A stretch of DNA of 64,000 nt. Origin: Actinomycetota bacterium (GTDB lineage: Bacteria; Actinomycetota; Acidimicrobiia; Acidimicrobiales; Ilumatobacteraceae). Location of the stretch: NCBI GenBank assembly GCA_016213625.1, contig JACQZZ010000097.1, forward strand, positions 1-64,000, written 5' to 3'. Below are positions 24,701 through 35,045 of this stretch, in pieces. The stretch's first letter is position 1, and the number at the start of each line of letters is the position of its first letter. The position numbers and the translations under genes were made by a program. The notes under the pieces were generated by a model, which worked only from the letters and a program-made list of their open reading frames with translations, searched no databases and was not told the origin of the DNA.

Positions 24701-24731
24701 GAACTTAAGTTCCGACGTCGGAACTTAAGTT
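24701..24731. repeat. 30-bp perfect palindrome with two AACTTAAGTT copies
   Basis: Positions 24702-24731 are perfectly self-complementary: AACTTAAGTT, then the 10-bp centre CCGACGTCGG, then AACTTAAGTT. Position 24701 adds the G that completes GAACTTAAGTTC at 24701-24712. It lies between the esterase gene and the left end of the mobile element, in chromosomal sequence that once followed rel. It could be a bidirectional terminator or a protein-binding site. Confidence 0.7.
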
Positions 24732-24743
24732 TGCGTGCGTGGG

Positions 24744-24782
24744 GTCAGCCGCCTTTGCCGGGGACCAGGCGGTAGGCGTCGT
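24744..24782. repeat. attL: left copy of 39-bp direct repeat (displaced rel 3' end)
   Basis: 38 of 39 bases match 32822-32860; the only difference is t24754 against c32832. Read on the minus strand it encodes the last residues of Rel (DAYRLVPGKGG, then TGA), with AAA in place of AAG for lysine, a silent change. It has no upstream coding sequence, so it is the original chromosomal end of rel left behind by integration. Confidence 0.88.
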
Positions 24783-24889
24783 CTAGTGAGGTGCCACCTG
24801 TATGCGGGAGGCTGATCCACCTGGTCAAACGCGACCGCAGGGTGTGCACCTATTCGCCTGGTGCTGGCGTCCCTCTCGGCGGTTCGGTG

Positions 24890-25225
24890 CTAGTCGTCCA
24901 AACCCACGTCGGTCGCCTCGTCGTCCTCCGTCGAGGTCATAAACCAGCCGGTCTGAGCCCACGGCCTGGAACGGTCCCCGAATCCAGGTCGCCCGTCGGA
25001 GTACATCACGTAGTCGCCGCTCTGGATCGTGGCGAATGAACGAGCGAGGCGGCTGAGACGCTCCCCCTGGTCCGTCGGCGTCGCAGCCTCCGAGGCGATC
25101 GCGCGCAGCACAGCCAGCAGTGCTTCGTGGAGAGCACTGTCCAACTCGGCTCGCTTCGCCTCGAATTCAGCCGCCCTTCCTTCGTCGAGGTCGTCCGCAG
25201 GCGTGAACGAGGGCCAATCCGTCAT
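24890..25225 (-). CDS. Hypothetical protein of the mobile element
   Basis: 111-residue acidic protein I do not recognise. The N-terminal half is helical (DEGRAAEFEAKRAELDSALHEALLAVLRAIAS), the middle has SFATIQSGDYVMYSDGRPGFG, and the C-terminus is very acidic (STEDDEATDVGLDD). ATG 25225 is preferred over an upstream in-frame start because TAGACT lies 7 nt before it. It is the gene nearest attL and lies 54 nt downstream of the adaptor-like gene on the same strand. A virion or packaging accessory role is possible from position only. Confidence 0.62.
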   Translation of the reverse strand: MTDWPSFTPADDLDEGRAAEFEAKRAELDSALHEALLAVLRAIASEAATPTDQGERLSRLARSFATIQSGDYVMYSDGRPGFGDRSRPWAQTGWFMTSTEDDEATDVGLDD

Positions 25226-25232
25226 GGCCGTG

Positions 25233-25238
25233 AGTCTA
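25233..25238 (-). promoter_or_regulatory. -10 box of the attL-proximal gene
   Basis: TAGACT on the minus strand, 7 nt upstream of ATG 25225. Confidence 0.35.
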
Positions 25239-25279
25239 GGACTGGTGGCCACACCTCCTGCCCGAGAGGGATCAGGCCG

Positions 25280-25645
25280 TCAAACCGGGATGCGGCGCCA
25301 GTGTTGGTCGTTGTCGTCCAACAGGTCGCAGAACCTCAGGTCGTCGGTCTCCTCCACCGCCTCCATGATGGCGTCCAGCACCTTCACGCTGGCGTGTAGG
25401 GCGCGCCGGTAGGGGCGCAGCAGCATGGCCTCCGTGGCCGTCAGGGGCACCGCCGTGCCACCCTCGGCGTACATGACGCTGTAGGCGCCTACCGTCTGCG
25501 ACGCGGTGCCAGGCGCGGCCTGCGCCATGCGCTCAGCGAGCACCGTCACCAGGTCGGCCACCGCAGCGGGCTGCGGGTCAGGCAGCCGCGGGTACTCCGA
25601 ATGCAGCGCGGCCAGCGCAATGGCGATCCAATCGGAAATAGACAT
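25280..25645 (-). CDS. Putative phage head-tail adaptor
   Basis: 121 residues. The central stretch TVGAYSVMYAEGGTAVPLTATE followed by AMLLRPYRR resembles the (S/T)xGdYSVtYA...LTxxExxxLrrYRR pattern of small head-tail connector/adaptor proteins in actinobacteriophages; this is pattern recognition, not a search result. The N-terminus is helical (SDWIAIALAALHSEYPRLP). Divergent from the protease-like gene: TACCCT lies 8 nt upstream of its ATG (25654-25659). If it is an adaptor, it is odd that it is on the opposite strand from the capsid gene. Confidence 0.58.
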   Translation of the reverse strand: MSISDWIAIALAALHSEYPRLPDPQPAAVADLVTVLAERMAQAAPGTASQTVGAYSVMYAEGGTAVPLTATEAMLLRPYRRALHASVKVLDAIMEAVEETDDLRFCDLLDDNDQHWRRIPV

Positions 25646-25653
25646 ACCCCCCG

Positions 25654-25699
25654 AGGGTACATCCAGGCGCTACGGACACGGCTGGACCACAACTAGCCT
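25654..25699. promoter_or_regulatory. Divergent leaderless promoters inside the mobile element
   Basis: The 61 nt between two divergent starts contain TACCCT on the minus strand (25654-25659, 8 nt from ATG 25645) and TAGCCT on the plus strand (25694-25699, 7 nt from ATG 25707). Confidence 0.42.
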
Positions 25700-25706
25700 G
25701 CGCCGC

Positions 25707-26510
25707 ATGCCGGACAAGATCACCAAGCGCGTCATCGTCGCGACCACCCACCCAATGCGCGCCTACGGCGGAGTCCGCTTCTCTCGTGAGGCCCTCGCCG
25801 GCCTGGCCGACAGTCTGAACAAGGGCAAGACCCCGTGGCACCTGGAGCATGACGCGCTTCAGCCGCTGGACGCCGAGGTCATCGCGGCAGGGCTCAACGA
25901 ACGCGACGACGGCGAGGCGGAGGTGTGGGCCGAACTGCGAGTCGACGGTGCCCAGTGGGGTGCCTACGAGCGCGCGGTGGTGGAGGCCGGCGCTCCAGGT
26001 GGCATCTCGGTGAGTGCTACGTCAACCATCAGCCGACATCCCGGCCCACCTGGGGCGCCAGTTGGCGTCGAGGTGGTGGTCGCAGCGGACGCAGCGCACT
26101 TCTCAGACGAGGAGATCGACGCCGCCGCTGCGGAGATCGCCCACAACGTCCCGGCAAGGTCAGCGGAACTGTTTCAGTTCTCCCATCAACCCCCGGCGCT
26201 CATCGTGTTGGAATTCGTATTAGACGGCGGAGTTCAGGTGGCGTGGGGCGTCCTCGGCAGTTACGTGTACGACGCGCTTCGCAAACTCAGGAAGGACTCG
26301 CCTGCTGCGGTGCAACTCGTCGTGGAGGAGCCGGAGCGCGTGGTGAAGGCGGTCATCCCGCATGGGACCGACCAGGCCACGGTGGACAAGGCGCTGGCCA
26401 GTTGGGAGCGTGTCGCGGCCCAGGGTCGAGGCGTCTACTCGTACGACGAGGCGGAGGACTGGCGGTTCTCACACCCGGACCCACGGAATGAGAAGCCTGC
26501 TGACGACTAG
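25707..26510 (+). CDS. Putative prohead-protease-like protein
   Basis: 267 residues. Position directly before the capsid gene and the pattern of the first 110 residues suggest an HK97-type (S78-like) maturation protease. PWHLEHDALQPLDAEVIAAG has the His48-Asp49 pair and the following strand expected of wnHd...lG. EAEVWAELRVDGAQWGA matches the beta-strand region, and APGGISVSATSTI (Ser101/Ser103) is a candidate nucleophile like the lSiGf motif. The C-terminal part (QVAWGVLGSYVYDALRKLRK, VVEEPERVVKAVIPHG) is not explained by a protease fold and could be a fused scaffold or other domain. Start from TAGCCT 7 nt upstream. Confidence 0.6.
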   Translation: MPDKITKRVIVATTHPMRAYGGVRFSREALAGLADSLNKGKTPWHLEHDALQPLDAEVIAAGLNERDDGEAEVWAELRVDGAQWGAYERAVVEAGAPGGISVSATSTISRHPGPPGAPVGVEVVVAADAAHFSDEEIDAAAAEIAHNVPARSAELFQFSHQPPALIVLEFVLDGGVQVAWGVLGSYVYDALRKLRKDSPAAVQLVVEEPERVVKAVIPHGTDQATVDKALASWERVAAQGRGVYSYDEAEDWRFSHPDPRNEKPADD

Positions 26511-26731
26511 CCCTGCGGGCTATCATTGCTAATGAGCCGGTGGCTGTGCCCCGGTGGTAGGTGCGCCAAGCGCACTGAGGGCCTGTGGCCAACCGACCCG
26601 GCAGGGCTGTGCCCGCCAGTCGTCACAAGAGCAGCCCGCTGCACCCACGCCCCCGGGTGCTGTGTGAGCGCCAGGCCCGGCAAACCGCTGCCACCCCGTC
26701 AACCCGCTCTCACTCCCCAAGGAGAACAACC
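26511..26731 (+). other. 221-nt untranslated leader of the capsid gene
   Basis: Stretch between the protease-like stop and the capsid GTG. It holds several GC-rich complementary segments but no convincing coding frame; an in-frame extension of the capsid gene back to 26585 is Arg/Pro/His-rich without protein character. A ribosome-binding site GGAG at 26721-26724 ends it. It may hold a promoter, a structured 5' UTR or a small RNA. Confidence 0.4.
26721..26724 (+). promoter_or_regulatory. Ribosome-binding site of capsid gene
   Basis: GGAG (context AAGGAGAAC) 7 nt before GTG 26732. It fixes the start and contrasts with the leaderless genes around it. Confidence 0.7.
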
Positions 26732-27544
26732 GTGGCACTCTCCCGTGCATCCTTCGATGGCATCACCGTTCCCGACGAGGTTCGTGACTCCATCCTGTCC
26801 ACCCTCGTCGGTGGCGCCCCCTTCGGCCGCAGCCTGCCAGTGCTCCGCACCGTCCGTGGCACGATCGCGTTCCCCATCGCCGCCCCGTCCGGTCAGGGCT
26901 GGGTCGCTGAGAACCAGCCGCTCCCGACCGTCACGCTGAACGACGACTCGTACGTCATCGGCGTGGCCAAGATCGCCGGCCTGATCGCCATGTCGAACGA
27001 ATCGATGACCGACTCCGTGCTCGACCAGGAAGCCGCCGTGGGCGCGGTCCTCAAGGACACCCTCAGCGCCGACCTCGATGACGGCCTCCTCAACGGCACC
27101 GGCATCGCCCCCATCCCCGCAGGCGTCATCGGTCGCGCCACCAGCACCACCGGCACGTTCACCGACATGCGCTCCGGTGTCATCGCGAGCATCGGTGAAC
27201 TCATCGACGCGGGCGCCGACCCCAGCGCCATCAAGGTGTACGCCAACGGTCTCACGGTCGCCCCCGAACTGGCCCGCGAGGGCACCGCTGGCCCGATCTA
27301 CACCAAAGGCGTGGACGGCCTGCCGTACGGTGCGCAGATCGTCCCGGCGCAGAAGATGGGCGCCGCCGAAGTGCTCGTCGTGGACACCACCCGCTGCTGG
27401 CTCGTTACCCACGACGACTTTGAGGTCGCCGTGTCCGGCGAGGCAGGCTTCGCCAACGACCAGACGCTCCTGCGCATCAAGGGCCGCTTCAACGTGGCGA
27501 CTCCGGTGCCCGGCAAGGCGCTCCGCACCTTCACGGTGTCGTGA
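26732..27544 (+). CDS. HK97-fold major capsid protein
   Basis: Structural shell protein of 270 residues. The family pattern is clear: GQGWVAENQPLPTVTLNDDS (P-domain/E-loop region), VAKIAGLIAMSNESMTDS (the lvpvSnEll motif), LDDGLLNGTGIAPIPAGV (nGtG..p.Gi) and the C-terminal VDTTRCWLVTHDDFEVAVSGEAGFANDQTLLRIKGRFNV in segments typical of HK97 capsids. Short N-terminus with no long delta domain, so scaffolding may be separate. GTG 26732 has a strong RBS. A 12-bp stem terminator follows the stop immediately. A capsid gene without portal or terminase points to a satellite that builds its own (perhaps smaller) shell. Confidence 0.85.
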   Translation: MALSRASFDGITVPDEVRDSILSTLVGGAPFGRSLPVLRTVRGTIAFPIAAPSGQGWVAENQPLPTVTLNDDSYVIGVAKIAGLIAMSNESMTDSVLDQEAAVGAVLKDTLSADLDDGLLNGTGIAPIPAGVIGRATSTTGTFTDMRSGVIASIGELIDAGADPSAIKVYANGLTVAPELAREGTAGPIYTKGVDGLPYGAQIVPAQKMGAAEVLVVDTTRCWLVTHDDFEVAVSGEAGFANDQTLLRIKGRFNVATPVPGKALRTFTVS

Positions 27545-27546
27545 TC

Positions 27547-27578
27547 GCGGGCCGGGGGCGCTCACTCCCCCGGCCCGC
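27547..27578 (+). terminator. Terminator hairpin after capsid gene
   Basis: Perfect 12-bp stem (GCGGGCCGGGGG pairing with CCCCCGGCCCGC) with an 8-nt loop, starting 3 nt after the capsid stop. No T-run follows, as is common in high-GC actinobacteria. Confidence 0.75.
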
Positions 27579-27674
27579 ACCTCCTCCACTGACGGGTGGA
27601 AGTAGGGGCCTCCAGCGGACTTCCGAACAGGGTCGCCGCTGGGGGCCTCTGCGCGTCCGGGCACCGCAACGCGA

Positions 27675-27703
27675 GCAGCCCCCGGCACTCGGCCTGGGGC
27701 TGC
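27675..27703 (-). terminator. Possible terminator after zinc-ribbon gene
   Basis: 8-bp stem GCAGCCCC / GGGGCTGC with a 13-nt loop, 27 nt beyond the zinc-ribbon stop on the minus strand. With the capsid terminator it separates the two convergent transcripts. Confidence 0.4.
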
Positions 27704-27729
27704 ACACTTGTGCGCTCAGCGGCACGTGG

Positions 27730-28131
27730 TCACTGCTGTTTGCGCGGCTTCTTCGCCTGTGCTGCCGCGGTCGTCTTCAGCAGCGCCTCCGCCTCCTCGA
27801 TGGCCTGCGCGGCAGCCCGCTTGGCCTGCACCGTGGGCGACACGTTGTCCCGACATTTACGGCACCGCGTGGAGCGCAATTCCGGACCGCTGATCGTGGG
27901 GAACGAGTTCACCGGCAAGGTCATCAGGCAGATGCGGCACTGGTGGTAGCCGTTCGTGTCCTCCGCGTGAAACGAGGGCGCCGGAGCGAGGGAAGACGAG
28001 CCCTTAGGGCCGGCAGCGGACAGCGACTTCGCCTTCGGTGCAGGCGCCTCCTTCGCGGGGGCCTTCTTGGTGGTTGCGGTCTTGTTGTTGGAGGCTGCGG
28101 TGCCCTTGGCGGGCTTCGGTGAGGTTGTCAT
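27730..28131 (-). CDS. Zinc-ribbon protein with Lys/Ala-rich tails
   Basis: 133 residues. A four-cysteine zinc site is visible (Cys65-x2-Cys68 and Cys90-x2-Cys93 in YHQCRICLMTLP ... RSTRCRKCRDN). The N-terminal 50 residues are Lys/Ala/Pro/Ser-rich like histone tails (KPAKG, KTATTKKAPAKEAPAPKAK) and the C-terminus is again basic and helical. Such small phage zinc-ribbon proteins are often annotated as HNH-like or DNA-binding, but the catalytic HNH histidines are not evident. Likely DNA-binding. It is last on the minus-strand side before the capsid gene and has an inverted repeat just upstream of its start. Confidence 0.62.
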   Translation of the reverse strand: MTTSPKPAKGTAASNNKTATTKKAPAKEAPAPKAKSLSAAGPKGSSSLAPAPSFHAEDTNGYHQCRICLMTLPVNSFPTISGPELRSTRCRKCRDNVSPTVQAKRAAAQAIEEAEALLKTTAAAQAKKPRKQQ

Positions 28132-28136
28132 GCCCG

Positions 28137-28164
28137 AATCGAATGCACGAACATCCGTTCGATT
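28137..28164 (-). promoter_or_regulatory. Inverted repeat upstream of zinc-ribbon gene, possible operator
   Basis: AATCGAA (28137-28143) and TTCGATT (28158-28164) form a 7-bp inverted repeat with 14 nt between, starting 6 nt upstream of the ATG. A dimeric regulator could bind here. Confidence 0.35.
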
Positions 28165-28193
28165 GCAAGGCCATAAGCCGCTCTATGGGCGTG

Positions 28194-29000
28194 CTACGGC
28201 GATTGCGCGGCCCCGATCGTGAAGTCCAGTCCCTCGAGTACGCCATCAAATCCCTCGCAGTGCGCGAGTTCAGGTGTCACCCCGCGCCGCGCTTGGTAGC
28301 GGCAGTGAATGAGCGTCACGTACATGTGCATGCCGTGCATGAGGCGGCCAAACTCGTCCATCGCCAGCGCGACGCGATCTCCAACGGCGAGACCGAATCC
28401 TGGGCACTTGTCGATGAAACGTTGGTCGGCGTTACCTGCCCGGTGCGCCCACACGTTCCGAACTTGCTGGGCGTCAAAGATCGCCTTCCGCACCCGGGCG
28501 GGCACTGGCCCGGACAAGCCGGCCAGTTCAAGCAGCGGCTCAAACCGCGTCACGCCCTGTTCTAGCGGGGACTTGAGTTCTCGACGCCACTCGCTGAGAA
28601 GAGTCTTCGCAGCGTCGTCAGGAGATTCAAGAAGTGTGGCAGCAGGGACGCGAACGCGCCGGAACGCGTCTGCACCTACCGACGCTGGATTGGCGACGAT
28701 GGAGGCAACGACAAGATCTTCGATGAAGGTCTCCAGCAAACTCCAGAGCACCATCAGCATGCTCGAGTGGACGATCGGGTATCCCGCATCGATCTCTGTC
28801 TTCGCCATCGCGGCGATCTTGTCGGCGCGATGTTGGCGGAAGTCCTCAACCTTGAGGAGTCGCAAGACTTCCTTGTCTCTACAGAGACTCGTATAGCCCT
28901 CGTGGGTGAGGTGAACCAGAGACTCGATGTGCCCAGACCCCTCAGCCCAGTTCATGAAGATCGGGCGAAGGTTGTCTGGTCCAACTTGAGCGTTGCTCAT
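28194..29000 (-). CDS. HEPN-motif protein coupled to Mrr endonuclease
   Basis: 268 residues, strongly helical, no signal peptide. Residues 181-186 (RNVWAH) match the R-x4-6-H motif of HEPN domains, with helices before (LSEWRRELKSPLEQGV, ARVRKAIFDAQQV) and after, as in RiboL-PSP-HEPN and related families. Many HEPN proteins are RNases in toxin-antitoxin or abortive-infection systems; others are inactive partners. A hydrophobic helix MLMVLWSLLETFIEDLVVASIV (81-102; shown in parts: MLMVLWSLLETF) is part of the bundle. The ATG overlaps the Mrr stop by 4 bp (ATGA), so the two proteins are probably made together and may act together. Function inferred, not shown. Confidence 0.66.
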   Translation of the reverse strand: MSNAQVGPDNLRPIFMNWAEGSGHIESLVHLTHEGYTSLCRDKEVLRLLKVEDFRQHRADKIAAMAKTEIDAGYPIVHSSMLMVLWSLLETFIEDLVVASIVANPASVGADAFRRVRVPAATLLESPDDAAKTLLSEWRRELKSPLEQGVTRFEPLLELAGLSGPVPARVRKAIFDAQQVRNVWAHRAGNADQRFIDKCPGFGLAVGDRVALAMDEFGRLMHGMHMYVTLIHCRYQARRGVTPELAHCEGFDGVLEGLDFTIGAAQSP

Positions 29001-29914
29001 CTGGCGCCCTCCGAGTCGAAGCGGTCGAACCAGTCTTCGTTGACGACGGGTTGAATGGTGAGGCCGATCTCCTGGGCGCGAACGAGGTCACACAGGCGTT
29101 CTCCGTCGATGAGGTCAACACGGGGCGTCACGGTGGTGGCCGCCTTGCGAGCCGGCGCCGTGAAGCGAGCGAGAGTGATGAACACTGCCCGCTCCGCGCC
29201 GGCAGCAGCAGCGTCCCGCTGGAAGAGCGCAACCGTGTCACGCCCCACACTCGATGCAGGGTCGAAGCGCTTGGCCTGAACTGCCACCGTCGCAGAAAGC
29301 ACCTCGCTCAAGGGAGCAGTCCCGATCCCGTCGATGCCCTCGTCTCCGGTGCCACCCACACGTGTCAGGTGCAGCCCGTAGCGGCGCAGCAGGTACATGC
29401 AGAACTCCTCGAACCCGGTGGGCGTCAGCCTGTGAAGTCGGGCTAGCAGGCGCTCACGCCAAGCATCGGACTCATCGCCCGCCTCCTCCATGGCAGCCTC
29501 ACGCGCCACCTGCTCCTCATCAGCCGGGGCTGCGACCTCACCGGCCTTCCGTGGCTTGGCAGGCCGCGCTGAACGAACCTGCCGGTCCATGTCAGCCAGC
29601 CGGGTACGCGCTGCATCGTCCGGCATCGCCAGCACGTCTCGCCCCACCGGGGTCAGCAGGAAGAGCCCACGCTTGGGACTCTCCAGCGCGCCACCCAGTT
29701 TGCAGTAGGAGCGCGCCCAGTCCATCCGATCCAGCAACACCGACAGCGGCCTGTTCGGATACTGGATGGCCACCTGCTCATCCGTGTAGCCCTCTGCCTC
29801 CACCACCTGGTTGCTGATCTCACGTCCTGTTGCGGACCCGCCCAGTGCCTCGATGGCCCTCAGGACGGGCAACATCAGATCGTTGTAACGCGGCAGGGTG
29901 TCATGGCTAGCCAT
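28997..29914 (-). CDS. Mrr-type restriction endonuclease
   Basis: 305 residues. N-terminal winged-helix Mrr_N domain (LMLPVLRAIEALGG ... LFLLTPVGRDVL), an acidic/charged linker (about 115-150), and a C-terminal PD-(D/E)xK Mrr catalytic domain: TGFEEFCMYLLRRYG, GGTGDEGIDGIG (catalytic Asp195) and VAVQAKRFDP (Gln-Ala-Lys 213-215). Mrr enzymes cut modified DNA, so it can act against phages with modified genomes. No methyltransferase is nearby, consistent with a modification-dependent enzyme. ATG 29914 chosen; an in-frame start at 29941 is possible. Translationally coupled to the HEPN-motif gene. Confidence 0.86.
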   Translation of the reverse strand: MASHDTLPRYNDLMLPVLRAIEALGGSATGREISNQVVEAEGYTDEQVAIQYPNRPLSVLLDRMDWARSYCKLGGALESPKRGLFLLTPVGRDVLAMPDDAARTRLADMDRQVRSARPAKPRKAGEVAAPADEEQVAREAAMEEAGDESDAWRERLLARLHRLTPTGFEEFCMYLLRRYGLHLTRVGGTGDEGIDGIGTAPLSEVLSATVAVQAKRFDPASSVGRDTVALFQRDAAAAGAERAVFITLARFTAPARKAATTVTPRVDLIDGERLCDLVRAQEIGLTIQPVVNEDWFDRFDSEGAR

Positions 29915-29966
29915 CCGCAGAGTCTTGCCCAGCGGCACCACGCATCACGACCATCGCAACCATCGT

Positions 29967-29996
29967 GGTGGGGTACCACCCCCTCCCCCCGGGGGG
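29967..29996. other. GC-rich inverted repeats between rep operon and Mrr gene
   Basis: A 5-bp stem (GGTGG / CCACC, loop of 4) followed by CCCCCCGGGGGG at 29985-29996. It lies in the 162-nt gap and could end the upstream operon or hold the Mrr promoter; no clear -10 box was found. Confidence 0.3.
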
Positions 29997-30076
29997 CCTC
30001 CTGGCCAGAGGGGACTGCCGACACGTGCGCGGCCGAGTTAGCCGCAACGTACGCGATGGTTACGACAGCGCGGACC

Positions 30077-30337
30077 CTAGGCATCGTCCAGCAGGTCCTC
30101 CACCAACAGCGCCAGCGCCGTTTCACGTGCCATCGCCAGGCTGTGGAACACGGTGCAGTCCGGGTCCCCGTCGACGCGCAGGCCACGCTCCCGGGTGAGC
30201 CGCGCCACCTCCTCGCTCTGCGCGTCCCACTCATCGCCCAGGGGGACACGCAGGATGACGCGCCCGAAGTGCACCACCCACCCGGCGCTCTTGGAGAGCA
30301 CGAGCACCCCAGGCTTCATCGTCGGATCACCAGTCAC
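30077..30337 (-). CDS. Small hypothetical protein of the mobile element
   Basis: 86 residues from a GTG start that overlaps the stop of the preceding replication-type gene by 4 bp (GTGA); an internal ATG at 30319 is the alternative. Reads as a small alpha/beta protein (GVLVLSKSAGWVVHFGRVILRVPLG, then two helices ending ALALLVEDLLDDA). Not recognised. Being last in a four-gene coupled chain with the initiator, it may help replication or copy control; that is inference only. Confidence 0.65.
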   Translation of the reverse strand: MTGDPTMKPGVLVLSKSAGWVVHFGRVILRVPLGDEWDAQSEEVARLTRERGLRVDGDPDCTVFHSLAMARETALALLVEDLLDDA

Positions 30338-31140
30338 AGGTCCTCCTCGGTCCAGATGTCTTCGTCCTCCTCCAGCAGCCCTGCATTCACCGCTCGGGGT
30401 GCCAGGTGGTCCAGTGCCGTGTCCAGCGCCGACCACGGATTGTCGATGTGGTGCGGCAGGTACTCGTCCCGGAGCAGCGCGTCCCGCAGGGGGCGCCAGA
30501 GGTCGTCCGCCGCCGCGTGCGCGTCCTCCCACTGCCAGCCGATCCCCAGGTCCACCATGCGCCTCGCGAGATGATCCACAGCCCTACGAGCGAGTGCGTC
30601 CACCTCTGCGGCGGGCTTGCCCGTCGCGCTCACCGCAGGTGTAGGCGTAGGCACCACCTGGACGGTCTCCTGGTAGTCCTCCTGGTTCTGTGTACCGCGC
30701 ACCTCTGCGCGGTTCGATTCGCGCAGGTCTGCGCGGTTCGGTTCGCGCACCTCTGCACGGTTGCCCGCCATGGCCTCCGCCGAGTAAGCGCGCACTTCTG
30801 CGCGGTTACTCACCAAGTCCCACAGGGCCGCCGTGGGCCTGTAGTGACAGACCTTGCGTCCGTGGAAGAAGTGCTGTTCAACCTCGAACAGTCCCAGCCG
30901 AACCAGCGACTGACGCGCCCGGCGCACCTGGGTCGGTGCGAGCCGCCGGCGCGTCCAGCCCTCGTCGGTGTCCTCCAGAGCGAGCCACCGGCCGTCGTGG
31001 CGGAGCGCCCCGAAGGAGGGGTACTCGACCCACAGTCGGGCGAGCAGCGAGATGACGATGGCATCACGCATCGACCACTCCTGGCCTTCAGGCATGGCCC
31101 AGGGGTAGAGCGTGAAGCCCGGCCCCAGGTCGGCGCTCAC
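30334..31140 (-). CDS. Probable replication initiator / winged-helix DNA-binding protein
   Basis: 268 residues from GTG 31140. The N-terminal half looks like a winged-helix domain (SMRDAIVISLLARLWVEY, RRRLAPTQVRRARQSLVRLGLFEVEQHFF, VCHYRPT), as in phage replication proteins and some plasmid initiators. The middle has four degenerate repeats NRAEVRE/NRADLRE (about residues 112-149) encoded by iteron-like DNA repeats. The C-terminal half is helical and acidic (ending LLEEDEDIWTEEDL), suited to recruit a helicase or loader. The GTG overlaps the stop of a 43-residue gene by 4 bp. Assignment rests on layout and iterons, not on a recognised family. Confidence 0.58.
   Translation of the reverse strand: MSADLGPGFTLYPWAMPEGQEWSMRDAIVISLLARLWVEYPSFGALRHDGRWLALEDTDEGWTRRRLAPTQVRRARQSLVRLGLFEVEQHFFHGRKVCHYRPTAALWDLVSNRAEVRAYSAEAMAGNRAEVREPNRADLRESNRAEVRGTQNQEDYQETVQVVPTPTPAVSATGKPAAEVDALARRAVDHLARRMVDLGIGWQWEDAHAAADDLWRPLRDALLRDEYLPHHIDNPWSALDTALDHLAPRAVNAGLLEEDEDIWTEEDL
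30696..30807. repeat. Four iteron-like 19-bp repeats, candidate replication origin
   Basis: Copies at 30696-30714, 30720-30738, 30744-30762 and 30789-30807, based on CGCGCACCTCTGCGCGGTT with one to three changes each. Start-to-start spacing is 24, 24 and 45 bp, all multiples of three, so they encode NRAEVR-type repeats in the overlapping gene. Regular direct repeats within or beside an initiator gene are the usual form of an iteron origin. Confidence 0.62.
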
Positions 31141-31268
31141 CAGGCCACCCACCAGATGGTGACGAGCCAGTACGCTTGCGCACGACGACGTTCCGCGGCG
31201 GCAACTGCGGTCAGGTCCTGGTGGCCCGCCTCCCACTCGGGGGCGGGCCACTTCGCGTCACGGGACAT
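31137..31268 (-). CDS. 43-residue protein with C-terminal hydrophobic helix
   Basis: Begins MSRDAKWPAPEWEAGHQDL, continues with a basic stretch (AAAERRRAQ) and ends AYWLVTIWWVAW, a short hydrophobic segment that could enter a membrane. Support for its reality comes from both ends: its ATG overlaps the previous gene's stop by one base (TGATG), and its own TGA overlaps the next gene's GTG by 4 bp (GTGA). This gives an unbroken coupled chain. Function unknown; a toxin-like or regulatory micro-protein is possible. Confidence 0.6.
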   Translation of the reverse strand: MSRDAKWPAPEWEAGHQDLTAVAAAERRRAQAYWLVTIWWVAW

Positions 31269-31543
31269 CACCTGTCCCCCACTCGATCCACACGGCGACC
31301 ACCGCTCCTCGCCTGCCGAGCCTTCACGCCCTTGGCAGACAGTTCGAGGTACCAGGCACGCCTCAGGTTCTCAGCCGCCTTGCGGCGGGTCTCCTCGTCG
31401 GCCTGCGCCATGTGTGGCGCCAGCCGAGCCAGCCAGTACTCCAGCCCCGTGGGGCTGAGGTTGCGACCGGGTGCCGTCCGGGCGGCTCGGTCAGGGGTGT
31501 TGGCCCACGACCTGTTGGCCGCGACCCTGTGTTGCATCGTCAC
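31268..31543 (-). CDS. Small basic protein at the head of the rep operon
   Basis: 91 residues, rich in Arg and Ala: GRNLSPTGLEYWLARLAPHMA then DEETRRKAAENLRRAWYLELSAKGVKARQA. Not recognised; the helical basic C-terminal half could bind nucleic acid. GTG 31543 is preceded by a strong Shine-Dalgarno GAGGAGG with 7 nt spacing. First of four overlapping genes leading to the putative initiator. Confidence 0.65.
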   Translation of the reverse strand: MTMQHRVAANRSWANTPDRAARTAPGRNLSPTGLEYWLARLAPHMAQADEETRRKAAENLRRAWYLELSAKGVKARQARSGGRRVDRVGDR

Positions 31544-31712
31544 GATGCGTCCTCCTCAATCCTGGGGCGCGCTGCTGATGGCGCCTTGGGCATCGAAAGG
31601 AGCTGGTCGTGATGCGGTACATGATTGGTCCTTGGGGGGTAGTTCCGGACTTACGGCGGCACCCCAACCTTACACGTGTGCGGTGACGAATTGCAGGGGT
31701 GTAACTCCCCGC

Positions 31713-31726
31713 CTAGGCATGCCTAG
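31713..31726. promoter_or_regulatory. 14-bp palindrome, possible operator
   Basis: CTAGGCATGCCTAG is perfectly self-complementary and sits between the integrase stop and the promoter side of the rep operon, a place where a repressor or excisionase might bind. Confidence 0.4.
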
Positions 31727-31741
31727 CAGGACTTATGCGTC
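31725..31741 (+). repeat. 17-bp direct repeat, copy 1 (integrase 3' side)
   Basis: AGCAGGACTTATGCGTC matches 32808-32824 in 16 of 17 positions. The two copies bracket the integrase gene in the same orientation, as integrase arm-type sites might. Confidence 0.5.
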
Positions 31742-31756
31742 GTCAGCCTGGCGCCG

Positions 31757-32674
31757 TCACAGGCCCTGACCGATGCCCAACCGTGCCGCCTCAGCCTGCG
31801 CGCGTCCGGCCGCGGCCGACCTGCCGTAGCGGTCGATCATCGCCCGGTTGGACCACCCAGCGGACGCCATCAGGCTCCCCTCGGTGCCGCCCTTCGACAA
31901 CCATGAGTGGGCGAAGAGGTGCCGCCACGCATGTGGATTCGCTCGCTCGACACCGGCCCACGCGGCACGACGTTGGAGCATCTGCTGGATGCCGGCCCCG
32001 CCGAACGCCTGCTCCTTGCCGAGCCAGAGAGCCTCGAGATGGGCGAGCCGGTGCAACGCCCTTGCGCGGAGGTAGCGCCGGAGCGCCAGGGCAGTGTGGT
32101 CGGGGAAGTAGACCACGCGACCCTTGCCACCCTTGCCGCGCACGATGTGGGCGGTCTGCGCCTTCAGGTCGACATCTGCCAGCGACAGCCCGGCACACTC
32201 GCCGCGCCGCATCCCGGTACCCAGCAGCATGCGGATGACCGCCTCGTCACGGATGCCGTAGAAGTCACGCTCACACGTAGCCAGGATCGCCTTCACCTGG
32301 TCATCCTGGAGCACCGGTACCACGGGCATCGACCGACGTGGCTTCTCCACAAGTGCGGTCGGATCAGTTTCAGCGAGCCCTTCCTGGCAGCACCACTTCC
32401 AGAAGGCCTGTAGACCGCCATGGCGGGTGATCGCGGTGCTGTCGCTCGTGCGGGCCAGCACGTCCGCCAGGTAGCCACGCACCTCCCCCGCCGTCACGTC
32501 ATCGGTGGTCGCATCAGGCCTTCCGTGCTCGGCGAGCCAGGTGGTCAACTGGGCAACGGCAGTGCCGTACACCTTTCGAGTCGCGGGCGACTTGTTCGCC
32601 GCCCGCATGGCCAGGTCCCACTCGTCCGCAGCGTCGGCAAGTAGCGCCCCTTGGGGCATGTTGGTCTTGGGCAT
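31757..32674 (-). CDS. Tyrosine recombinase / integrase
   Basis: Site-specific recombinase of 305 residues, expected to integrate and excise the element at the rel 3' end. N-terminal SAM-like core-binding domain (SPATRKVYGTAVAQLTTWL, AITRHGGLQAFWKWCC) and C-terminal catalytic domain with all key residues: Arg156 in GTGMRRGECAGL, Lys in RGKGGKGRVVYF, His248-x2-Arg251 in NPHAWRHLFAH, and nucleophile Tyr283 in GWSNRAMIDRYGR. ATG 32674 has a strong RBS (AGGAGGGG, 7 nt away). Similar in layout to XerC/XerD and short phage integrases. The gene is 148 nt from attR, the usual position for an integrase. Confidence 0.93.
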   Translation of the reverse strand: MPKTNMPQGALLADAADEWDLAMRAANKSPATRKVYGTAVAQLTTWLAEHGRPDATTDDVTAGEVRGYLADVLARTSDSTAITRHGGLQAFWKWCCQEGLAETDPTALVEKPRRSMPVVPVLQDDQVKAILATCERDFYGIRDEAVIRMLLGTGMRRGECAGLSLADVDLKAQTAHIVRGKGGKGRVVYFPDHTALALRRYLRARALHRLAHLEALWLGKEQAFGGAGIQQMLQRRAAWAGVERANPHAWRHLFAHSWLSKGGTEGSLMASAGWSNRAMIDRYGRSAAAGRAQAEAARLGIGQGL

Positions 32675-32807
32675 GGGAGCACCCCTCCTGTGTTCAGCGC
32701 CCCGGGGCACCGCTACCAACGGCCCGGGGCGCACGTATGTTCGATCCCCAGCCTACCGTATGGTGCACCCCTGTGGGTATGCGCGCCAGCATGGTGCAAG
32801 TACCCTG

Positions 32808-32824
32808 AGCAGGGCTTATGCGTC
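32808..32824 (+). repeat. 17-bp direct repeat, copy 2 (overlaps edge of attR)
   Basis: AGCAGGGCTTATGCGTC, one mismatch to 31725-31741. Its last three bases overlap the attR repeat. Confidence 0.5.
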
Positions 32825-32860
32825 AGCCGCCCTTGCCGGGGACCAGGCGGTAGGCGTCGT
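32822..32860. repeat. attR: right copy of 39-bp direct repeat, forms current rel 3' end
   Basis: Matches 24744-24782 at 38 of 39 positions. It supplies the last 11 codons and stop of the intact rel gene, so integration does not change the Rel protein. Confidence 0.88.
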
Positions 32861-35045
32861 ACACGGAGTCGATCTGCTTGATGGTGCGCAGGACGGACTC
32901 GAGGTGCGACGGGTCGCCCATCTCGAACTCGAAGCGCATCTTCGCCACTCGATCGGAGCCCGTGTGTGTGCTGCACGCCACGATGTTGACGTGCTGCTCG
33001 CTGAGCGAGTTGGCGACGTCGCGCAGCAGCTTCGACCGGTCGAGCGCGACGACTTCCACGGCGGCACGGAACAACGCCTTCGACTGGTCGCCGTCCCACT
33101 CCACCTCCACGAGGCGAGCGGCCTGCTCGTTCATCAGACTGCCGGCGTTGGCACAGTCGGCGCGGTGCACGGACACGCCGCGTCCACGGGTGACGAAGCC
33201 GATGATCTCGTCGCCGGGTACGGGCGTGCAGCACCGCGAGAGGCGCACCAGCACGTCGTCGATGCCCTCCACGTGCACGCCGGCGGTGTTGCGCGGCTTG
33301 CGATCGGTGGCGCTGTGCAACGCCGGCGCGGCGGGAAGCTGCTCGCTGTCGGAATCGTGATGCAGTCGCCGAGCCACCTTGCCGGCCACCGAACGCGCCG
33401 ACACGTGGCCCTCGCCGATGGCGGCGAGCATCGAGTCGAGATCGGAGTACGAGGCGGCTTCGATCTCTGCCGCGAGCGCGTCGCTGGCCCACAGGCGCTG
33501 CACGGGCAGGCCCTCCCGACGGAACTCCTTCGTGAGCTCGTCGCGGCCGGCTTCCACCATGTCGTCGCGACGCTCGCGAGAGAACCACTGCTTGATCTTG
33601 TTGCGCGCACGCGGCGACTCGACGAACTGCAACCAGTCGCGCGTGGGGCCCGCAGACTCGACCTTCGACGTGAAGATCTCGCAGGTGTCGCCGCTCTTCA
33701 TCTGATGGTGCAGCGGCACGAGGCGTCCGTTGACCTTGGCACCGATGCACGCGTGGCCCACCTCGGTGTGCACCGCGTAGGCGAAGTCGACCGTCGTCGA
33801 GCCGACGGGCAACGTGACGACCTTGCCCTTGGGGGTGAACACGAACACCTCGTCCTGCTCGAGGTCGGTCTTCAGGCTCTCCATGAACGCGGCGGGGTCG
33901 CTGACCTCTGCCTGCCAGTCGATGATGCGATTCAGCCAGTCGATCTCGGTGCTGGCGCCCACGCCGTCCTTGTAGGCCCAGTGCGCCGCCACGCCCCATT
34001 CGGCACGCTGGTGCATCTCGCGAGTGCGGATCTGCACCTCCACCACCTTGCCGCCCGGCCCGATGACCGTGGTGTGCAAGCTCTGATAGAGGTTGAACTT
34101 CGGCATCGCGATGTAGTCCTTGAACCGACCCACGACCGGCTTGTACCGACCATGGATGCAGCCGAGGGCCGCGTAGCAGTCCTTCACCGAATCGACGATG
34201 ACTCGGATGGCGATGAGGTCGAAGATGTCGTCGAACTCGCGCCCCTTCTGCACCATCTTCTCGTAGATGCTCCACAGGTGCTTGCCGCGGCCGGTGACCT
34301 CGGCCGAGATGTTCAACTCCTGCAGGCGTCCCCCGAACTCGGCGATCGCCTTTGCCAGGTACAGCTCTCGCTCGGGCGATCGCCCCGACACCAGATGGTC
34401 CAGTTCGGCGTAGCGCTTCGGGTACAGCGAGGCGAACGACAGGTCTTCGAGCTGCTGCTTGAGTTCCTGCATGCCCAGCCGGTGCGCGAGCGGGGCGTAG
34501 ATCTCCAACGTCTCGTGCGCGATGCGCTGCTGCTTCTCGGACGGCATCGCGGCGATGGTGCGCATGTTGTGCAGACGGTCGGCCAACTTGATGATGAGCA
34601 CGCGCAGGTCTCGCGCCATGGCCACCAACATCTTGCGCATGGTGGCGGCCTGCTGCGCCTCCTTGGAGTCGAACTGCAGGCGCTCGAGCTTGGTGACGCC
34701 GTCGACGATCTGCGCGACCTCCGCCCCGAACGCGGTCTCGACGTCGGCGATGGTGATCTCGGTGTCCTCCACCGCGTCGTGCAACAGCGCGGCGGCGAGG
34801 GAGATCTCATCGAGCCCCAGGTCGGCCACGATGCGGGCCACGGCCAGCGGATGGTTGATGTAGCTCTCGCCACTGCTGCGCAACTGGTGGCGGTGCGCCT
34901 CCTTGGCCGTCTCGTAGGCGCGGTTGATGAGCGCCACCGACGCCTTCGGGTGCCGCCGCCTGTAGGCCGTGAGCAGCGGTGTCAGCTCCTCGGCCGTCGC
35001 GTTCTGGTGGCGACGCCAGGGCAGAACACGATCGACCGCTGCCAT
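32823..35045 (-). CDS. rel: Bifunctional (p)ppGpp synthetase/hydrolase Rel
   Basis: Stringent-response enzyme making and degrading (p)ppGpp, 740 residues. HD hydrolase domain with SYINHPLAVA (His65) and LLHDAVEDTE (His89-Asp90); synthetase domain with GRFKDYIAMPK and NLYQSLHTTV, the RxKD form found in bifunctional Rel enzymes; TGS domain (DEVFVFTPKGKVVTLPVGST); zinc-finger/CC domain (LSRCCTPVPGDEIIGFVTRG); C-terminal ACT domain. The final codons lie inside attR of the mobile element; the protein sequence is unaffected. Its ATG overlaps the apt stop by one base (TGATG). Confidence 0.97.
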   Translation of the reverse strand: MAAVDRVLPWRRHQNATAEELTPLLTAYRRRHPKASVALINRAYETAKEAHRHQLRSSGESYINHPLAVARIVADLGLDEISLAAALLHDAVEDTEITIADVETAFGAEVAQIVDGVTKLERLQFDSKEAQQAATMRKMLVAMARDLRVLIIKLADRLHNMRTIAAMPSEKQQRIAHETLEIYAPLAHRLGMQELKQQLEDLSFASLYPKRYAELDHLVSGRSPERELYLAKAIAEFGGRLQELNISAEVTGRGKHLWSIYEKMVQKGREFDDIFDLIAIRVIVDSVKDCYAALGCIHGRYKPVVGRFKDYIAMPKFNLYQSLHTTVIGPGGKVVEVQIRTREMHQRAEWGVAAHWAYKDGVGASTEIDWLNRIIDWQAEVSDPAAFMESLKTDLEQDEVFVFTPKGKVVTLPVGSTTVDFAYAVHTEVGHACIGAKVNGRLVPLHHQMKSGDTCEIFTSKVESAGPTRDWLQFVESPRARNKIKQWFSRERRDDMVEAGRDELTKEFRREGLPVQRLWASDALAAEIEAASYSDLDSMLAAIGEGHVSARSVAGKVARRLHHDSDSEQLPAAPALHSATDRKPRNTAGVHVEGIDDVLVRLSRCCTPVPGDEIIGFVTRGRGVSVHRADCANAGSLMNEQAARLVEVEWDGDQSKALFRAAVEVVALDRSKLLRDVANSLSEQHVNIVACSTHTGSDRVAKMRFEFEMGDPSHLESVLRTIKQIDSVYDAYRLVPGKGG

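What the first reader, a model, noticed from the sequence alone, without database searches (positions are those of the whole stretch)
24744..32860. Capsid-encoding satellite-like element inserted at the rel 3' end
Two 39-bp copies of the rel 3' end bracket an 8.1-kb block with integrase, capsid, protease-like and adaptor-like proteins, a probable initiator and a restriction/HEPN pair, but no portal, terminase, tail or lysis gene. Known analogues are phiRv1/phiRv2 and capsid-forming PICIs; use of the rel stop region as attachment site and this gene set appear unusual. The surrounding order (secD-secF-apt-rel ... hisS-aspS-rarA) is the conserved one, so the insertion is a clean interruption.
Basis: partly seen in the sequence, partly recalled or inferred. 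Interest (0 to 1): 0.9.

Follow-up and report, generated by a model that had tools for sequence, protein, structure and literature searches.

The report
Small mobile element carrying one capsid
An 8-kilobase genetic parasite sits at the end of a bacterial stress-response gene and appears to carry its own virus-type shell protein but none of the machinery found so far to fill or deliver that shell, which suggests that it borrows those parts from a helper virus.

Summary
A 39-bp direct repeat (38/39 identical, found at two places in the assembly) brackets 8,078 bp at the rel 3' end. In 11 of 14 same-genus genomes hisS follows rel within 36-578 nt; three could not be read. The block encodes a tyrosine integrase, an HK97-type capsid protein, an Mrr-like restriction enzyme and a putative initiator. 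No portal, terminase, tail or lysis family matched the ORFs tested.

One is a contig with identical ends (7,908-bp circle).

The 'protease' is not confirmed, the 'adaptor' is weak, and 'HEPN' rests on a motif.

Best reading: a helper-dependent satellite that supplies its own small shell and borrows portal, terminase and tail. Integrase-plus-capsid islands are already described in mycobacteria, so this is a new variant of a known kind. Mobility and packaging are inferred, not shown.

The parts
24744..24782 (.). attL: displaced original rel 3' end (39-bp repeat, left copy)
24890..25225 (-). 111-aa ORF of unknown function; weak local likeness to the next ORF
   Evidence: only weak matches, best 0.041-0.17; PADLOC Cas8e 0.0086; BLASTP to 25280-25645 E 0.010
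25280..25645 (-). 121-aa protein, weakly head-tail adaptor (Ad1)-like
   Evidence: phrog_137 7.6e-5, phrog_442 1.1e-4, phrog_1161 0.0022; no BLASTP match to the clear Ad1 of L024
25707..26510 (+).
   Evidence: two homologs besides itself; H48, D49 and S101 conserved in the three; no family, fold or S78 profile match
26732..27544 (+). HK97-type major capsid protein of mature size (270 aa)
   Evidence: PF05065 1e-17; TIGR01554 best stretch residues 10-154 at profile positions 113-265 of 385; top PDB fold HK97 head 3.9e-12
27730..28131 (-). 133-aa protein with a CxxC...CxxC zinc-finger-like motif (read by eye)
   Evidence: no Pfam match; PHROG Lar-like 0.017, endonuclease VII and HNH 0.04-0.1
28194..29000 (-). 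268-aa protein, HEPN-like only by the motif RNVWAH; overlaps the Mrr frame by 4 bp
   Evidence: sequence; no family or PDB match
28997..29941 (-). Mrr-like type IV restriction endonuclease (Mrr_N + Mrr_cat)
   Evidence: PADLOC mREase_IV 3.9e-35
30077..30337 (-). 86-aa ORF of unknown function
30334..31251 (-). putative replication initiator with internal iterons
   Evidence: no family match; no homolog but itself (capped candidate list); four iterons inside the gene
30696..30807 (-). four 19-bp iterons AACCGYGCAGANNTGCGCG at 30696, 30720, 30744 and 30789: putative origin
   Evidence: 4 in the 64-kb window, 0.02 expected, 0 of 100 shuffles reach 4; pattern written from these copies
31268..31543 (-). 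91-aa ORF of unknown function
   Evidence: phrog_2842 (unknown function) E 0.0036
31725..31748 (.). 24-nt repeat that recurs at 32808-32831 (83%), flanking int: possible arm-type site
31757..32734 (-). tyrosine integrase, 87 bp from attR (an internal ATG gives a shorter start)
   Evidence: PF00589 3.4e-24, phrog_1 1.2e-37
32808..32831 (.). second copy of the int-flanking repeat, running into attR
32822..32860 (.). attR: right copy of the 39-bp repeat, which forms the present rel 3' end
32823..35045 (-). rel, intact target gene

Best explanation
An integrated, helper-dependent phage satellite. Steps: (1) the integrase recombines an element copy of the last 39 bp of rel with the chromosome, so that Rel is rebuilt unchanged (outcome shown by sequence and by empty sites in relatives; the act of the integrase is inferred). 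(2) After excision the element replicates from four dyad-symmetric iterons inside its initiator gene (iterons shown, use inferred). (3) It makes its own HK97-type capsid subunit of mature size, which would assemble into a small shell matched to an about 8-kb genome (capsid identity shown, assembly inferred). (4) Portal, terminase and tail come from an infecting helper phage, perhaps matched through the adaptor-like protein (inferred from their absence). (5) Mrr and its overlapping partner serve as anti-phage cargo (inferred).
For: att duplication and empty site. HK97 capsid. No portal or terminase family matched the element's ORFs; PF04860, PF03354 and a second PF05065 were not found in the 92%-complete assembly. 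Capsid relatives: L016 lies in a 7,640-bp interval between exact 31-bp repeats; G374 in an about 8,075-bp interval between weaker repeats, 17 bp exact; L062 is an 8,031-bp contig whose first and last 123 bp are identical, i.e. a 7,908-bp circle, with serine recombinase, DnaB-like helicase and one capsid and no portal or terminase match among 8 ORFs. Of 11 window proteins only the capsid has a tblastn match (1e-3) in the three other elements, 38-44% identical. L016 and L062 capsids fall with the window's in a clade supported 100/98, and their dN/dS is 0.19. Iterons: 4 against 0.02 expected; the G374 HTH gene also holds four copies of a unit of its own.
Against: No excision, particle or transfer was observed; no helper or packaging signal is known. 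Identical contig ends show a closed contig, not a packaged genome. The lack of portal and terminase is a lack of profile matches, and several ORFs have no match at all. L016 and L062 also share a DnaB-like gene, a WhiB-like gene and the gene upstream of the capsid, so they are related elements and not fully independent cases. More distant capsids of the same profile come with connectors, small-terminase-like, scaffold or tape-measure-like genes (G331, G623), so the lone-capsid state may be one end of a range. Close homologs are almost absent from viral and phage collections, where packaged genomes might be expected.
Confidence: 0.6

Rival explanations
1. Decayed prophage: a once complete temperate phage lost portal, terminase, tail and lysis genes, and capsid, adaptor and integrase are leftovers.
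For: Lone weak adaptor-like gene; no mobility shown; capsid fold is an ordinary phage one; more distant capsids of the profile sit with connectors and small-terminase-like genes.
Against: Integrase, capsid and Mrr frames are intact and the att repeats are 38/39 identical. A lone capsid recurs in three other bounded or circular elements with other recombinases. Capsid under purifying selection between two of them (dN/dS 0.19). No close phage relative by tblastn among 50,697 phage records with two of the capsids.
Confidence: 0.17
2. The capsid protein does not package element DNA. It forms a protein compartment (encapsulin-like) or poisons the assembly of infecting phages, and the island is a defence island that moves by its integrase alone.
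For: No packaging gene found; encapsulins also match the model (7bcv 4.7e-10); defence-like cargo in the window (Mrr), G374 (TIR) and L062 (PD-T7-4-like).
Against: Best fold and profile matches are to phage capsids, and no encapsulin family was matched in Pfam or NCBIfam. No neighbour of the capsid is shared by all four elements. The 7.64-8.08 kb size range fits a packaging limit, on four cases only.
Confidence: 0.13
3. A capsid-forming PICI in the strict sense, with portal and terminase too diverged to be recognised.
For: Integrated island with its own capsid; of the 11 ORFs taken as genes, three above 200 aa are unassigned (25707-26510, 28194-29000, 30334-31251).
Against: Those three are 267, 268 and 305 aa, short for a portal or large terminase (usual size recalled as 350-600 aa), and the last holds the iterons. 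One was modelled, at low confidence, with no match.
Confidence: 0.06

Closest known systems
Mycobacterium candidate PICIs and prophage-like elements, including phiRv1 and phiRv2 (PMC10654092 and PMC3986857, passages read)
   Same: Integrated actinobacterial islands defined in the first paper by integrase plus major capsid; some with helicase, terminase or scaffold genes; elements in the second paper include several of about 9-12 kb, and phiBN42_1 has integrase, excisionase, primase, prohead protease and capsid as its five assigned functions
   Different: Window element is 8.1 kb, has no recognised primase and no confirmed protease, and uses the rel 3' end; direct sequence comparison with phiRv1, phiRv2 or phiBN42_1 was not made
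Capsid-forming PICIs (gene set as stated in PMC10690885, passages read)
   Same: Satellite-type island with its own HK97-type capsid
   Different: cf-PICIs are stated to carry capsid, protease, portal, connectors, both terminase subunits and HNH; here no portal or terminase match and no confirmed protease
MulchRoom and MiniFlayer Streptomyces satellites (PMC10690885, passages read)
   Same: Actinobacterial satellites with their own capsid; MulchRoom has a tyrosine integrase
   Different: They encode terminases, portal and scaffold and lack recognised replication genes; the window element has a putative initiator and no portal or terminase match
Lambda O gene with its internal origin (recalled)
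   Same: Four dyad-symmetric iterons in the middle of an initiator gene
   Different: No sequence similarity was tested or is claimed

Membership tests
Integrase + capsid island (candidate PICI sensu PMC10654092) | phage-like region with integration gene and major capsid gene | tested here: met
   PF00589 and PF05065; TIGR01554
Integrase + capsid island (candidate PICI sensu PMC10654092) | defined att junctions | tested here: met
   39-bp repeat and empty sites in relatives
Integrase + capsid island (candidate PICI sensu PMC10654092) | induction or packaging by a helper phage | not testable with these tools
   needs live host and phage
Capsid-forming PICI | portal and large terminase | tested here: not met
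   no match in the ORFs; PF04860 and PF03354 not found in the assembly
Capsid-forming PICI | head maturation protease | tested here: inconclusive
   H/S pattern only; no S78 or fold match, model poor
Capsid-forming PICI | HK97-type major capsid | tested here: met
Encapsulin | match to an encapsulin family | tested here: not met
   none in Pfam or NCBIfam; encapsulin fold hits rank below HK97
Complete prophage | portal, terminase, tail and lysis genes | tested here: not met

The most novel reading that the evidence does not exclude
A family of about 8-kb actinobacterial satellites whose one gene shared by all members is a capsid protein that starts near the mature residue. Each element replicates itself, often carries anti-phage cargo, and imposes a small shell of its own (perhaps T=3) on a helper's portal, terminase and tail, so that capsid supply alone, not capsid remodelling or a full head module, defines the parasite.
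Probability: 0.4. Interest if true: 0.8.

Novelty: new variant of a known kind. Interest (0 to 1): 0.6.

Why it matters
The satellites described in the papers seen here mostly either resize a helper's capsid or bring a whole head-and-packaging module. Elements that keep a single capsid gene while the rest changes would show that the shell alone is worth carrying, and would make capsid-portal compatibility between unrelated phages directly testable. The recurring size near 8 kb gives a prediction for shell size, and the closed circular relative gives a complete gene list to test.

Tried and rejected
Protease: the H48/D49 and S101 pattern looked like a prohead protease, but profile, fold and hhalign comparisons gave nothing. 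The model was weak (pLDDT 63.8, most of the first 100 residues under 50) and the S78 profile held three sequences, so this is inconclusive rather than negative.

Second capsid or prophage in the assembly as helper: none by PF05065, PF04860 or PF03354; other portal and terminase families were not tried.

Close capsids in other collections: none in phage records with two capsids, none in plasmids with the window capsid. Seven viral-contig scans gave one locus, L062 (found twice); the one genome-contig scan gave L016.

Weaker profile hits: seven regions were fetched besides G374 (G331, G623, G513, G227, G362, G341, G1170); G335, G338, G407, G423, G559, G563, G672, G094, G704 and G180 were not looked at in context. 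G331 and G623 lie in serine-integrase regions with connector and small-terminase-like matches; G1170 has a tyrosine integrase and a primase-like gene. None of these is in the four-element size comparison, because their borders were not set. G362 and G513 look like phage regions by ORF pattern, with an S78 protease beside the G362 capsid. G341 was labelled phage in my tree without a test and may not be one. The G227 match was a short stretch among housekeeping-type ORFs.

Iterons as a general mark of replication genes: not general. In one search (18 genes) the window initiator had 4 copies and G374's 3; the two DnaB-like genes and the G1170 and G623 genes had 1-2. The L062 capsid gene also scored 3, so the count is a soft criterion and the dyad symmetry carries the argument.

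The paper on satellite identification (PMC10085698) is not held, so its criteria were not checked.
Full report
What was checked. The 39-bp repeat is real: 24744-24782 and 32822-32860, 38 of 39 bases identical. A search of the own assembly with 100 bases starting at the left copy finds the 39 bp at these two places only. The repeat is the 3' end of rel. The right copy completes rel (32823-35045, minus strand), the left copy is the displaced end, and the one difference is synonymous. In same-genus relatives rel is followed by hisS: 36-578 nt apart in 11 of the 14 genomes, unreadable in 3 because rel is partial or the contig ends. The integrase has no tblastn match in the fetched flanks of the relatives, which reach 1.5 kb or less. 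In the window the gap is about 10.3 kb, of which 8,078 bp is the element. The rest includes an esterase-like gene.

Genes. Eleven ORFs were taken as genes, by codon-position composition and reading; overlapping ORFs on the other strand were not submitted. Confirmed: tyrosine integrase (PF00589 3.4e-24), HK97-type capsid (PF05065 1e-17; TIGR01554 4.7e-15) and Mrr-type restriction enzyme. Weak: a head-tail adaptor-like protein (phrog_137 7.6e-5). Unconfirmed: the protease-like protein, which has two homologs besides itself in the large protein search and no significant match to families, solved structures, viral models or an S78 profile. The HEPN label rests on an RNVWAH motif that I recognise from memory; no tool matched it. 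No portal, terminase, tail or lysis family matched the ORFs submitted. The assembly (92% complete) has no second PF05065 and no PF04860 or PF03354 match; G374 and the genome of L016 also lack the last two.

The capsid. Its best stretch to the HK97 capsid model runs from residue 10 at position 113 of 385, so the part that HK97 cleaves off as the delta domain (recalled as residues 1-103) appears to be absent. The model (pLDDT 74.0) matches HK97 head structures best (3.9e-12), with encapsulins lower (4.7e-10 and weaker). The 18 proteins found, the query included, are 268-329 aa (the search takes 0.55 to 1.75 times the query's length). Mature size is not unique to these elements: comparison capsids from G513, G341 and G362 are 298, 331 and 353 aa.

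Replication. The 305-aa ORF 30334-31251 has no family match and no homolog but itself among the candidates scored (capped list). It holds four copies of AACCGYGCAGANNTGCGCG, with inverted halves. The window has just these 4 at up to 1 mismatch; 100 shuffles gave a mean of 0.02 and none reached 4. The pattern was written from the copies, so the test is after the fact. The G374 element has a gene with a weak HTH_36 match (6.8e-5, under the cut-off) that also holds four copies of a different unit (73-100% of the reference copy), with the clearest dyads in the two central ones. The two proteins share no significant BLASTP similarity. This layout recalls lambda O and its origin (from memory). In a count over 18 genes the window initiator had 4 copies and G374's 3, but the L062 capsid gene also scored 3.

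Relatives. L016, from a groundwater actinomycete MAG, has the capsid in a 7,640-bp interval between exact 31-bp repeats, with tyrosine integrase, HTH_17, DnaB-like and WhiB genes. G374 has it in an about 8,075-bp interval between weaker repeats (17 bp exact), with tyrosine integrase, HTH_17, the iteron gene and a TIR protein. L062 is an IMG/VR contig of 8,031 bp whose first and last 123 bp are identical, hence a 7,908-bp circle, with serine recombinase, DnaB-like helicase, a DUF4145 protein with a PD-T7-4-like match, one capsid and unassigned ORFs. Of the 11 window proteins only the capsid has a tblastn match (1e-3) in the other three, 38-44% identical. L016 and L062 share four genes (DnaB-like, WhiB-like, the gene upstream of the capsid, and the capsid) but have different recombinases. 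The L016 and G374 integrases are 26% identical. The L016 and L062 capsids fall with the window's in a clade supported 100/98; the branch that unites their side has 87/78. Between these two dS is 1.03 and dN 0.20, ratio 0.19. So four elements share a capsid and a size of 7.64-8.08 kb. Four is a small number, two of them are related elements, and one border is soft.

How common. The single capsid sequence hit 2 of 296 genomes of the class, the own one and a short weak match. The family profile hit 13 of 396 genomes of the phylum, 2 of them strongly, 5 of 395 of the class, only the own one strongly, and 2 of 296 of G374's class at 1e-20. In 50,697 phage records tblastn with two of the capsids found nothing. 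The integrase has matches at 1e-40 in 19 other genomes of 298 of the order, 36-43% identical (some matches partial), and matches under 60% identity in 154 phage records, so the integrase is of a common kind while the capsid is rare.

Interpretation. The best reading is a helper-dependent satellite that carries its own small shell and borrows portal, terminase and tail. Shown: integration, empty site, capsid identity, iterons, recurrence, closed circular relative. Inferred: excision, replication, assembly, helper use, defence role of the cargo.

Known relatives. A Mycobacterium survey calls regions with integrase plus major capsid candidate PICIs and includes phiRv1 and phiRv2 (PMC10654092, passages read). 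An earlier paper gives phiBN42_1 five assigned functions: integrase, excisionase, primase, prohead protease and capsid (PMC3986857, passages read). cf-PICIs are stated to carry portal and terminases as well (PMC10690885, passages read; a review, PMC11389934, was seen in passages), and that test is not met here. A search for Acidimicrobia with satellite, prophage and capsid listed no paper. Searches on satellites with capsids listed no other paper whose title or abstract opening describes a lone-capsid satellite; the full texts were not read, and the library holds open papers only. The element is therefore a new variant of a known kind, with the recurring size and lone capsid as the part worth following.

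Noticed in passing
24702-24731: A perfect 30-bp palindrome stands 12 bp outside attL. The assembly holds 28 places at up to 3 mismatches (8 exact), none for the reversed control: a repeated palindromic family of this genome.
   Followed up: partly
   Followed up: partly
   Followed up: partly
L025 5477-15139: Serine-integrase region with a DNA polymerase/primase-like gene, capsid, adaptor-like gene and a TIR protein; the same genome has a portal match on another contig.
   Followed up: partly
L038 1-382: In G761 the sequence after rel differs from the other relatives and the contig ends before hisS; another insertion at the rel end is possible.
   Followed up: no
L062 7753-8031 and 100-513: A DUF4145 gene may cross the joined ends of the circular contig; its second piece has a PD-T7-4-like defence match.
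   Followed up: no
L062 5266-5442 and 5974-6288: tblastn shows a WhiB-like gene and a homolog of the L016 gene upstream of the capsid, both missed in my first ORF list of L062.
   Followed up: partly
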